From Clostridiales bacterium (GTDB taxonomy: Bacteria > Bacillota > Clostridia > Peptostreptococcales > Anaerovoracaceae): a DNA stretch of 64,000 bases. Below the pieces are notes generated by a model. The model had not been told where the DNA came from, ran no database searches, and worked only from the letters and a program-made list of their open reading frames with translations. Position numbers and translations under genes: made by a program. The stretch covers positions 1-64,000 of the forward strand of contig JAAZCE010000022.1 in the NCBI GenBank assembly GCA_012513435.1. The letters run 5' to 3'. Numbering within the stretch: the first letter of the stretch is position 1; every line of letters starts with the position of its first letter. Below are positions 9,051 to 12,059 of this stretch, piece by piece.

Positions 9051-10274
9051 CTAAACCATCCATATTGGCACAATATAATTGTCTTTATCAATCGCAGAAA
9101 GCTCCGGCTTCATACAAATCACTGCACCTTTAGAACGCGGAGTAGAAGCTCTATCCAATAGATTAAATACCTTAACAAGCTCTGACCCCGGATTTGAAGT
9201 CTTCTTGATTTCGATTGGATTAAGAACTCCATCATGCTCTAGCACAATATCAATTTCCTTCGAATCCTTATCGCGATAATAATAAATGAATGGTTCCTTA
9301 CCACTATTCAAATAAGTCTTCATTATCTCCGCCACAACATAATTCTCAAGTATCACGCCATTCATGGCGCCACTTTCCAAAGTCTCGGCACTGCTCCACT
9401 TTGTCAAATAGCAAACCAAGCCTGTATCATAAAAATACAATTTCGGGGTCTTTACCAATCGCTTTAAAAGATTGTTGGAATATGGATGCAAATAGAATAT
9501 AATACCCAATGTTTCCAATATCCCCAACCAGCTTTTCACTTGTTTTTGATTAATATCTGCATCTCTGGCGATATCTGCTATATTCAGCATTTGACCGCAT
9601 CTCGCCGCTACTGCTGTAATAAAATGCAGAAACTTCAATGAGTCGATTGCGTCTGATAATTCTTTTACATCTCTCTCAATATATGTGGTCAAATAACTGC
9701 TGTAAAAAATTTGGTTATTGCTGTTCTGACCGCTTACAATAGCCGGCATAGAACCTCTAAAAATCCGCCCAAAGATATCTCGGGTATCAGCCTTTTTTCT
9801 TTCCTTGCCTCTTGCTTTCAGCGCACCTATATCAATAGTAAAAGGCTCCATTTCCCCGTAACATATTTCCGCCTGTGTCAAGGATGTCAACGAAAGAACC
9901 GCAACCCTTCCCGCTAACGACTCCTGAACTCCGCGCATCAGCTTAAATACCTGCGAACCTGTAAGCCAAAATGCTCCGGAATCATGATTCTTGTCTACAT
10001 GTATTTTTATATAAGCAAATAGCTCCGGCGCATACTGAATCTCATCAATCAATATCGGCGATTTATGCAGCTGCAAAAAGAGCTCAGGGTCAGTCTTTGC
10101 AAGATTTCTCTCGTTCAAATCGTCCAACGATACGTAGCCTCTGTCTGTGCCTGCCATTAGCTTCTGAAGCATCGTGGTTTTTCCCACCTGTCTAGGCCCG
10201 GTTACCAGTACGACCGGATATTCTTTTGTCACTTCAGAAACTACTTTTTCCAAATTCCTTGATATATAGTTCAT
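9051..10274 (-). CDS. AAA-type ATPase with DUF4143 domain
   Basis: 407 residues. N-terminal AAA ATPase: Walker A GPRQVGKTT near residue 26, Walker B-like PILIDEIQYAPELF, sensor WLTGSQVFKLM, and TSLTQAEICYG. The C-terminal DUF4143 domain starts around residue 210 with DIARDADINQKQVKSWLGIL (winged-helix-like) and ends with a PD-(D/E)XK-like fold segment YYYRDKDSKEIDIVLEHDG...NPIEIKKTSN. The family is very widespread in anaerobes and its function is unresolved; links with toxin or defence functions are guesses. Start at 10274 has GGGAG five bases upstream. Expression probably depends on the pair of GCCGAA inverted repeats just upstream. Confidence 0.85.
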   Translation of the reverse strand: MNYISRNLEKVVSEVTKEYPVVLVTGPRQVGKTTMLQKLMAGTDRGYVSLDDLNERNLAKTDPELFLQLHKSPILIDEIQYAPELFAYIKIHVDKNHDSGAFWLTGSQVFKLMRGVQESLAGRVAVLSLTSLTQAEICYGEMEPFTIDIGALKARGKERKKADTRDIFGRIFRGSMPAIVSGQNSNNQIFYSSYLTTYIERDVKELSDAIDSLKFLHFITAVAARCGQMLNIADIARDADINQKQVKSWLGILETLGIIFYLHPYSNNLLKRLVKTPKLYFYDTGLVCYLTKWSSAETLESGAMNGVILENYVVAEIMKTYLNSGKEPFIYYYRDKDSKEIDIVLEHDGVLNPIEIKKTSNPGSELVKVFNLLDRASTPRSKGAVICMKPELSAIDKDNYIVPIWMV

Positions 10275-10283
10275 ATAAGCTCC

Positions 10284-10389
10284 CTTCGGCTAATTCGTAT
10301 TATAATTACATATTAGCCGAAGTATTTAAAAAAAGCAAGTATATTTCGGCTATTATATATTATGATTCTACATTGGCCGAAATATACTT
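10284..10389. promoter_or_regulatory. Two consecutive inverted repeats with GCCGAA cores
   Basis: Four half-sites occur in 106 bp. Pair 1 is CTTCGGCTAAT at 10284-10294 and its exact complement at 10312-10322 (17-nt spacer). Pair 2 is AAGTATATTTCGGC at 10337-10350 and its exact complement at 10376-10389 (25-nt spacer). The spacers are AT-rich; that of pair 1 contains TATAAT on the minus strand (10299-10304 region) with no good -35, and the ATPase ATG lies 10 nt beyond the pair. This looks like a multi-site operator or activator array for the ATPase gene. Confidence 0.65.
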
Positions 10390-10425
10390 ACCCATTCCCT
10401 AATTATTTATGAATTCTAAAATTAT

Positions 10426-10839
10426 TCATCTAAATCCACGGAACTGAATCCGTTTCATGCTTTCACACGCTAATTTAATCCACTCAAATTCAGCTTTATC
10501 TACACCGGTTTCTAATTTTGCAACTTCACATTTGAGCATCCATATATTTGTAAGCTCCCAAGCACCAACAGATTCATTGCTTTTGCCATCTAAAAGTACA
10601 ATCTCAATCTTCTTGTATGTAGCTGCCTCTGTATTGCTGCCAAGAATACAGTCTATGAATTGTTTATTGCTAGAGCAGCCACGCCTTAGTGTAATAGCGC
10701 TGTGCTTCATAGGACTCGGCTGCACAATTCGATTGACTTCACCTCGAAATTCAATCGCTTCATCTGCCAGTTCTCCTCCACTTAATTCTGCAAATTCAGC
10801 ACACACCAGTCCATCAATTATAATATTGTAATGGTACAT
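10426..10839 (-). CDS. Phage tail-tube (T4 gp19-like) protein, isolated
   Basis: 137 residues from the chosen start. The sequence follows the pattern of the T4 gp19-like tail-tube family found in contractile phage tails and extracellular injection systems: YNIIIDGLVCAEFAELSG, then IVQPSPMKHSAITLRRGCSS, then KIEIVLLDGKSNESVGAWEL, TNIWMLKCEVAKLETG and EFEWIKLACESMKRI. Such subunits stack as hexameric rings. No other tail, sheath, baseplate, ClpV or spike gene occurs near it. It lies 46 nt downstream of cheW on the same strand and is probably co-transcribed. Start at 10839 (AAGGGTG eight bases upstream); two upstream in-frame ATGs overlap or abut the cheW end and lack a site. Fold assignment is by motif reading only; function in this setting is unknown. 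Confidence 0.65.
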   Translation of the reverse strand: MYHYNIIIDGLVCAEFAELSGGELADEAIEFRGEVNRIVQPSPMKHSAITLRRGCSSNKQFIDCILGSNTEAATYKKIEIVLLDGKSNESVGAWELTNIWMLKCEVAKLETGVDKAEFEWIKLACESMKRIQFRGFR

Positions 10840-10885
10840 TCGCTTTTCACCCTTTTCACTGTCTCTTCTTCTCAGATTCATTCTG

Positions 10886-11371
10886 TTAAAGAGATACACT
10901 TGTCAAAATCCCAAGCTCATCTCTTCCTATGATTTTACGTGTATCTATTAAGAGCGCAATCTGACTTTTTAATTTTGCGATACCGCGAAGATAGTTGATA
11001 CCATCTCCAGACATTTGCGGCGGAGATACGATGGCATCCTCCGCAATGGAAATCACTTCATCGACCTCGTCCACAATAAACCCAATATTCTTCTTTTGAA
11101 TACTTGCTACAATAATGCAGGTACGTTCATTGTAATCCGCTTCCACCTTACCCATACGCAAACGCATATCAACGAGTGGAATAATAGATCCCTGAAATTC
11201 AATCATACCTTTTGCATAATGCGGAAATCCCGGGATTGGTGTAATTTCCTGCATTTCAATTATTTGCACTATATCCATAAGCGGAATACCAAAAAGCTGT
11301 TGAGCTGTAAAGAATGTAAGATATTTTCCGTCCATTTGACTCGTGGTCTTTTCCATATCCAGTTGCGTCAT
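10886..11371 (-). CDS. CheW-like chemotaxis coupling protein
   Basis: 161 residues, one CheW domain: KYLTFFTAQQLFGIPLMDIV, IIEMQEITPIPGFPHYAKGM, IEFQGSIIPLVDMRLRMG, TCIIVASIQKKNIGFIVDEV and GINYLRGIAKLKSQIALLID. CheW couples methyl-accepting receptors to CheA kinase at the membrane. AGGAGG lies 8 nt before the start. No cheA, receptor or other chemotaxis gene is in the window, so this is an orphan copy. Its only same-strand partner is the gp19-like gene behind it. It could serve a distant chemosensory system or be a scaffold for the tail-tube-like protein. Confidence 0.9.
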   Translation of the reverse strand: MTQLDMEKTTSQMDGKYLTFFTAQQLFGIPLMDIVQIIEMQEITPIPGFPHYAKGMIEFQGSIIPLVDMRLRMGKVEADYNERTCIIVASIQKKNIGFIVDEVDEVISIAEDAIVSPPQMSGDGINYLRGIAKLKSQIALLIDTRKIIGRDELGILTSVSL

Positions 11372-11515: not shown

Positions 11516-12059
11516 TTACTTACATGGTTTTGCCCTCAAATCAAATTCAGGGTTTATAGCATAGAAATTCTTGCTGTTAAGGTTATCCTGCACAACTCTC
11601 AGTGCCTCTCCAAATCTCTGGAAATGAACAACTTCCCTTTCTCTAAGGTAACGCATAGGATCGATGACATCAGGGTCATCTACCATTCTCAAAATATTGT
11701 CATAGGTCGTTCTCGTTTTTTGTTCCGCAGCCATATCTTCAATTAAATCGGTAATAGCATCTCCCTTGGATGCGAATGACAATGCATCGAACGGGAATCC
11801 TGCTGCCGCCTGAGGATAAACACCTGCGGTGTGATCTACAAAATGGGTTTCAAGGCCTGCCTCTTTTATCTGCTCTATGGTCATATCCTTGGTCAGTTGA
11901 TGAACTATGGTACTGACCATTTCAAGATGCGCAAGTTCCTCCGTCCGTCAGTGTCGCAATACCTTCCTTATACGGCATCGAATACCTCTGTGACAAGTAG
12001 CGCTGCGAGGCGGCCAGCTCGCCATCAGGTCCTGCACCAATAATAATCACATCGTACAT
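11516..12059 (-). pseudogene. Manganese catalase / CotJC remnant: chimeric start plus frameshift
   Basis: Two reading frames together give a CotJC-type manganese catalase. Frame 1 begins at 12059 (GGAGAG nearby) and reads MYDVIIIGAGPDGELAAS, then YLSQRYSMPYKEG, and stops at TGA near 11925. Frame 2 continues EELAHLEMVSTIVHQLTK to the normal-looking C-terminus with YLREREVVHFQRFGEALR. The family expects DIGTEELAH at the junction; only D then a single base remain, implying loss of 8 nt near 11941-11943. The first eleven codons are not catalase-like: they match the FAD-binding start of thioredoxin reductases (MYDVIIIGAGP), replacing about 28 N-terminal residues. So the gene seems chimeric as well as frameshifted. 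Metal ligands in GEL, EELAH and the REREVVH region are still recognisable. Sequencing error could explain the frameshift but not the chimera. Confidence 0.8.

What the first reader, a model, noticed from the sequence alone, without database searches (positions are those of the whole stretch)
10426..11371. An isolated phage tail-tube-like gene paired with cheW
A gp19-like tail-tube protein lies directly behind an orphan CheW gene on the same strand, with no sheath, baseplate, spike or ClpV gene near and no cheA or receptor. Tail-tube proteins normally occur in phage or injection-system operons. A two-gene pairing with a chemosensory adaptor suggests either a domesticated tube protein used as a scaffold or filament, or a remnant next to an unrelated gene.
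Basis: partly seen in the sequence, partly recalled or inferred. Interest (0 to 1): 0.75.

Follow-up and report, generated by a model that had tools for sequence, protein, structure and literature searches.

The report
Lone injection-tube gene beside orphan cheW
One Clostridia-type genome carries a single, fast-changing relative of the tube protein of bacterial injection machines right behind a chemotaxis adaptor gene, although no sheath, receptor or kinase partner was found in that genome; the pairing was not seen in the other genomes examined, so it is probably a one-lineage rearrangement rather than a conserved partnership.

Summary
Window 10426-10839 (-) encodes a gp19-type tail-tube protein (PF06841, 51.5 bits; its ten best fold matches are chains of contractile injection systems, CIS), 46 bp behind a CheW gene (10886-11371, -). 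It is the genome's only gp19 and only CheW domain, with no MCP, sheath, gp25 or FlhA match. The pairing is not conserved: all 30 other gp19 loci fetched hold a sheath gene and none a CheW. None of 51 CheW relatives fetched has gp19 near it; 15 are followed by an MCP gene, the slot gp19 fills here. This CheW lost the NLRG motif that 51 of 51 relatives keep. Both genes sit on long branches. Neutral drift to the same divergence leaves an open gp19 frame in 2 of 1000 runs, so it hardly diverged as a dead remnant. Best reading: a lineage-specific recombination put a derived CIS tube gene in an MCP's place behind cheW. A shared function is possible but has no comparative support.

The parts
10426..10839 (-). 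gp19-like (CIS main-tube type) protein, 137 aa, stop included
   Evidence: PF06841 51.5 bits; best solved-structure match by sequence is 7adz, a CIS of Algoriphagus, E 7.6e-8; fold matches; only copy in the genome
10840..10885 (-). 46 bp gap between cheW stop and likely gp19 ATG; holds AAGGGTGA and another in-frame ATG (10881); a further in-frame GTG (10899) overlaps cheW
   Evidence: sequence
10886..11371 (-). CheW, 161 aa, NLRG motif replaced by EFQG
   Evidence: PF01584 118.4 bits; motif counts
11516..12059 (-). broken cotJC-like (Mn-catalase family) gene upstream of cheW; right-hand flank shared with genus mates
9051..10274 (-). DUF4143/AAA_14 ATPase downstream; left-hand flank, 73% DNA identity to one genus mate over 9051-10390

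Best explanation
In this one lineage a gene for a derived contractile-injection-system (CIS) main-tube protein came to sit directly behind a cheW whose relatives are often followed by a receptor (mcp) gene. Shown: the genes, the fold, the lack of sheath, gp25, MCP and CheA-type matches in the genome, the slot held by mcp in kin, the lack of the pair in the loci fetched, and the long branches. Inferred: illegitimate recombination replaced the mcp, and the tube protein is made from the second position of the cheW transcript. It keeps the gp19 fold and perhaps its ring-forming habit, but cannot take part in injection without sheath and baseplate. CheW can no longer bridge receptor and kinase, since neither was found and its NLRG Arg is lost. 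I think a direct CheW-tube interaction is less likely than two independently surviving orphan genes that happen to be neighbours.
For: Whole-genome absences. All 30 non-own gp19 loci fetched carry a sheath homologue and none a CheW; the 5 plasmid hits opened, of 10, also have a sheath gene beside the tube gene. In the closest CheW clade, 3 of 5 distinct relatives (L102, L104, L105) have an MCP directly behind cheW; the other two (L020, seen again as L103, and L021) lie between an ABC-transporter-like gene and an EAL/HDOD gene. Among 51 distinct CheW relatives fetched, 15 have an MCP behind them. No MCP trace in the window (best tblastn E 5.1). None of the 19 genus-mate loci fetched at the flanks holds cheW or gp19; no other genus member has a gp19 match, and only one, G211, has CheW-type matches. 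gp19 falls inside a main-tube group of 27 rows (support 100/97) on the longest of all end branches. Neutral simulations: 2 of 1000 gp19 runs keep an open frame, and none of the 1000 scores as high as the real protein (61.4 against a maximum of 54.9).
Against: Two unrelated orphan genes that both stay open, 46 bp apart on one strand, is somewhat unexpected if neither has a job with the other. CheW also beats neutral drift: score 191.1 against a maximum of 140.7 in 500 runs, with 30 of 500 frames open. The long CheW branch is not unique: L105, which keeps its MCP, has 1.09. Second tube genes inside ordinary CIS loci can also have long branches, up to 3.0. Two of the five near CheW relatives have no MCP behind them, so the ancestral slot is not certain. 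No empty site could be shown, because the two flanks are not adjacent in genus mates.
Confidence: 0.55

Rival explanations
1. A domesticated two-protein module. CheW, freed from receptor and kinase, serves as adaptor for sheathless gp19 rings or tubes; both families form six-membered rings in their usual settings (recalled).
For: Same strand, 46 bp gap; both are the only family members in the genome; both are on long branches yet keep their fold beyond neutral expectation; CheW lost its array motif while keeping much of its core.
Against: No second instance in the loci fetched; no co-variation can be tested with one example.
Confidence: 0.22
2. A poison or decoy subunit. A tube subunit with a shortened loop enters the tails of invading myophages or rival CIS and stops their assembly.
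For: The loop before strand 47-56 is three residues shorter than in the CIS main tubes compared and lacks the PGL motif; no sheath or gp25 of its own; the DUF4143 neighbour matches a PADLOC candidate-defence model, 366.8 bits.
Against: No PADLOC match of gp19 itself at E <= 0.01 and no match in phage records; it resembles CIS tubes more than phage ones; the PADLOC entry is only a candidate.
Confidence: 0.1
3. Two recent relics. This shares the rearrangement of the best reading but holds that neither gene is in use any more: both lost their use recently, and the divergence happened earlier, in a CIS and a chemotaxis system of another lineage.
For: The cotJC gene next door is already broken; partner genes not found; NLRG lost; low codon score of both genes.
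Against: No frameshift or stop in either; no closer tube in a CIS was found in 349 family, 393 order and 391 class genomes (overlapping sets, the last two samples).
Confidence: 0.25
4. Assembly or binning artefact joining pieces of different genomes.
For: Bin contamination 7.41%; the cotJC 5' end is an odd fusion; GC over the pair (0.35-0.40) is a little under the window's 0.429.
Against: Both flanks match genus mates at 73-78% DNA identity, and the nearest flanking stretches have similar GC, 0.36-0.45.
Confidence: 0.06

Closest known systems
CIS/eCIS main tube proteins (PF06841; CIS entries 7adz, 6rap, 6j0b)
   Same: fold, length, full-length profile match
   Different: 22-28% identity to the Clostridia tubes aligned, no sheath or gp25 gene, long branch, TIGR02241 cut-off not reached (43 of 62.4 bits)
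[quoted passage not shown]
   Same: a tube-type protein away from its machine
   Different: those are T6SS genes; here a gp19 type, in a genome without a sheath match, next to cheW
CheW of receptor-linked cheW-mcp pairs (L102, L104, L105)
   Same: 55-60% identity
   Different: mcp absent and gp19 in its place; EFQG for NLRG; no other CheW-type domain, hence no CheA, in the genome

Membership tests
Phage_T4_gp19 (PF06841) | profile score over the curated cut-off | tested here: met
   51.5 against 28.2 bits
Phage_T4_gp19 (PF06841) | tube-protein fold | tested here: met
   the 10 Foldseek matches at E <= 0.001 are all chains of CIS entries, TMq 0.46-0.54, rmsd 10.0-11.6; model of modest confidence, pLDDT 66.6
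TIGR02241 phage tail region protein | profile score over the curated cut-off | tested here: not met
   43 against 62.4 bits
CIS5 tube adaptor (NF053770) | profile score over the curated cut-off | tested here: not met
   40.8 against 260 bits
Contractile injection system | sheath gene | tested here: not met
   PF04984, 0 matches in the genome
Contractile injection system | gp25-type baseplate gene | tested here: not met
   PF04965, 0 matches in the genome
Contractile injection system | spike and ClpV-type ATPase | not tested
   not searched genome-wide
Tube-forming protein | hexameric rings that stack | not testable with these tools
   monomer prediction only
CheW (PF01584) | profile score over the curated cut-off | tested here: met
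   118.4 against 23.5 bits
Array-forming CheW | CheA and MCP present | tested here: not met
   only one CheW-type domain in the genome, which speaks against a CheA; no MCPsignal match
Array-forming CheW | Arg of NLRG (E. coli Arg62) | tested here: not met
   Gln60 here; N[LM]RG in 51 of 51 relatives fetched; aligned to chain 2ho9 (that 2ho9 is the E. coli protein is recalled)

The most novel reading that the evidence does not exclude
A CheW set free from chemoreceptors has been recruited as the adaptor of a sheathless tail-tube protein that took its receptor's place in the operon: a two-gene intracellular scaffold or filament built from parts of two unrelated machines.
Probability: 0.18. Interest if true: 0.85.

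Novelty: new variant of a known kind. Interest (0 to 1): 0.4.

Why it matters
All 30 other gp19 loci fetched hold a sheath gene, so a single intact gp19 gene that drifted far while keeping its fold is a natural test of whether tail-tube proteins can live outside injection machines. The CheW beside it shows what can happen to a scaffold protein when its array is gone.

Tried and rejected
Conserved pair: rejected on the searches done. Only part of the CheW matches were fetched with their neighbours (up to 30 loci in each, which matched 67 of 349 and 53 of 393 genomes), but the gp19 search covered the same 349 family genomes and found gp19 in only five others, each in a sheath locus. Prophage or CIS remnant still in place: rejected, ordinary chromosomal genes on both sides and no sheath or gp25. 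Phage origin: no phage record matches; of the IMG/VR scans with gp19 queries two gave none and one gave two relatives, both with a sheath gene; the CheW scan of IMG/VR gave none. Three further IMG/VR scans with other tube proteins found only the contigs already held or nothing. Dead pseudogene that drifted in place: unlikely for gp19 by simulation, with the limits that the start sequences were single living relatives, that only substitutions were modelled, and that the selection may have acted before the gene arrived here. Leftover mcp downstream: none. Codon usage settled nothing: gp19 0.071 and cheW 0.068 bits per codon lie above their antisense frames (-0.337, -0.33) but among the lower of the 13 window ORFs of 100-200 aa, and shadow ORFs reach 0.37. 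Promoter and terminator scans were at chance level. Literature searches for CheW with tail tube or contractile injection system, orphan or CheA-less CheW, standalone tube proteins, and Anaerovoracaceae chemotaxis listed no paper whose title or abstract start tells of such a pair (listings only). One paper, PMC3828127, was searched for passages.

Full report
Observation. The window's minus strand holds cheW (11371-10886) and, 46 bp further, a 137-aa gene (10839-10426) that matches PF06841 over nearly its whole length at 51.5 bits, against a cut-off of 28.2. It stays below the NCBIfam cut-offs for TIGR02241 (43 of 62.4) and CIS5 (40.8 of 260). PHROGs gave no solid match; the best, E 0.078, is a tail tube family. 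Among solved structures the best sequence match is 7adz, a CIS of Algoriphagus, E 7.6e-8. An AlphaFold2 model from a three-row alignment has modest confidence (pLDDT 66.6, pTM 0.63; residues 23-44 below 50). Its ten Foldseek matches at E <= 0.001 are all chains of CIS entries (PlPVC1, PVC, AFP, Algoriphagus, Anabaena, Streptomyces), with TM-scores of 0.46-0.54 by query length and rmsd of 10.0-11.6; Hcp and phage tube entries follow at weaker E-values. The alignment itself contained relatives, so this is not fully independent of the sequence match.

Genome. The held assembly is 2.28 Mb in 109 contigs, completeness 100 and contamination 7.41 as listed. It has one PF06841 match and one CheW domain; CheA and CheV carry that domain by general knowledge, so both seem absent. 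It has no MCPsignal, Phage_sheath_1, gp25 or FlhA match. The 12 neighbour ORFs scanned are metabolic, transport, regulatory or ATPase genes, a broken cotJC, and one without a match.

Relatives of gp19. With the window protein as query, matches at E <= 0.001 were found in 6 of 349 family genomes, 12 of 393 order genomes and 14 of 391 class genomes, own included each time. These sets overlap, and the order and class sets are samples. No other genus member matched. A genome-contig scan with exact 8-mers found none, and phage records gave none. Of three IMG/VR scans with queries headed by the window gp19, two gave none and one gave two loci. Plasmids gave ten records, of which I opened five: four have an annotated sheath gene directly upstream, and the fifth, without annotation, has one by sequence. 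All 30 non-own gp19 loci fetched have a sheath homologue in the fetched stretch and none a CheW; L015 and L018 cover the same cluster. In a 50-row tree the window protein falls in the main-tube group (27 rows, 100/97), but its end branch is 3.37 changes per column, the longest, against a median of 0.24, so its exact place is unsure; some second tube genes of ordinary CIS loci are also long, up to 3.0. Identity is 22-27% to 14 other tube-type proteins. A nearly invariant Trp is Cys64 here, and the loop before the third strand is three residues shorter than in the main tubes and lacks PGL.

Relatives of CheW. The closest are L102 (60%), L020 (57%; seen again as L103), L105 (56%), L104 (55%) and L021 (53%). 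With the window they form one clade (7 rows, 100/100); L102 as sister has weaker support, 89/75. In L102, L104 and L105 the next gene on the same strand is an MCP: MCPsignal in two, and in L105, cut by the contig end, the 4HB sensor and HAMP only. In L020/L103 and L021 the neighbours are an ABC-transporter-like gene (named from its motifs, not scanned) and an EAL/HDOD gene (Pfam for L020). Over the CheW loci fetched, 15 of 51 distinct relatives have an MCP directly behind, and none has gp19 near it. So gp19 occupies a slot that a receptor gene often holds, in one lineage only as far as searched. No MCP trace remains in the window.

State of CheW. Of 67 columns conserved in at least 90% of 30 rows, the window departs at 23, L020 and L021 at 15 and 14, and 27 other rows at 0-5; a partial second CheW of L022 departs at 24, partly because it is cut off. 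Those rows belong mostly to another clade, so part of the count is clade difference. NLRG is EFQG here, whereas N[LM]RG stands in 51 of 51 relatives. The Arg aligns with Arg62 of chain 2ho9, and Gln36 with its Glu38; Gln at the Glu38 place is shared by the near clade. The window's end branch is 1.01 against 0.23 for sister L102, but L105 has 1.09. PMC3828127 (abstract and passages) reports that R62A CheW binds its partners with essentially the same affinity but impairs chemotaxis, and that Arg62 and Glu38 form a salt bridge. With Gln at both places the window protein should not form it (inference).

Selection. Random drift of the L003 and L071 tube genes to 28% identity left an open frame in 2 of 500 and 0 of 500 runs. 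The profile score, from a model built without the window, reached at most 54.9, against 61.4 for the real protein. For CheW drifted from L102 to 60%, 30 of 500 frames stayed open and the best score was 140.7 against 191.1. Both genes therefore seem to have diverged under some selection for their fold. This does not say where or when, nor that they are still in use.

Locus. DNA of both flanks matches genus mates: DUF4143 with its upstream stretch (9051-10390) at 73% to one genome, and cotJC at 74-78% in eight. None of the 19 genus-mate loci fetched carries both genes or a gp19, and the eight whose neighbours I read show neither. The two flanks are not neighbours in the mates, so no empty site can be shown. 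The cotJC next door is itself a scar.

Conclusion. The fold claim is right, the orphan status is right and holds genome-wide for the families searched, and the conserved-pair idea is not supported. The most likely story is a lineage-specific rearrangement that put a derived CIS tube gene in a receptor gene's place. A working CheW-tube module remains open at about 0.2.

Noticed in passing
window 11516-12059 (-): cotJC is broken: compared with four genus mates a short deletion shifts its frame, and its first part is replaced by a start reading MYDVIIIGAG..., which looks like the start of an FAD oxidoreductase (motif recalled).
   Followed up: partly
window 10284-10389: Two inverted repeats with TTCGGCTA/TAGCCGAA-like cores lie between gp19 and the start of the DUF4143 ATPase gene; possibly its operator.
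   Followed up: no
window 9051-10274 (-): The DUF4143/AAA_14 ATPase matches the PADLOC candidate-defence model PDC-S01 at 366.8 bits.
   Followed up: no
L020, L021, L103: An isolated cheW of the same clade lies between an ABC-transporter-like gene and an EAL/HDOD gene in the same order in these loci, one of them from Anaerovorax sp. IOR16.
   Followed up: partly
L003-L017 and L069-L083 (28 loci used): 21 of these 28 CIS loci carry a second, divergent gp19-like gene about 0.6-2.1 kb behind the main tube gene.
   Followed up: no
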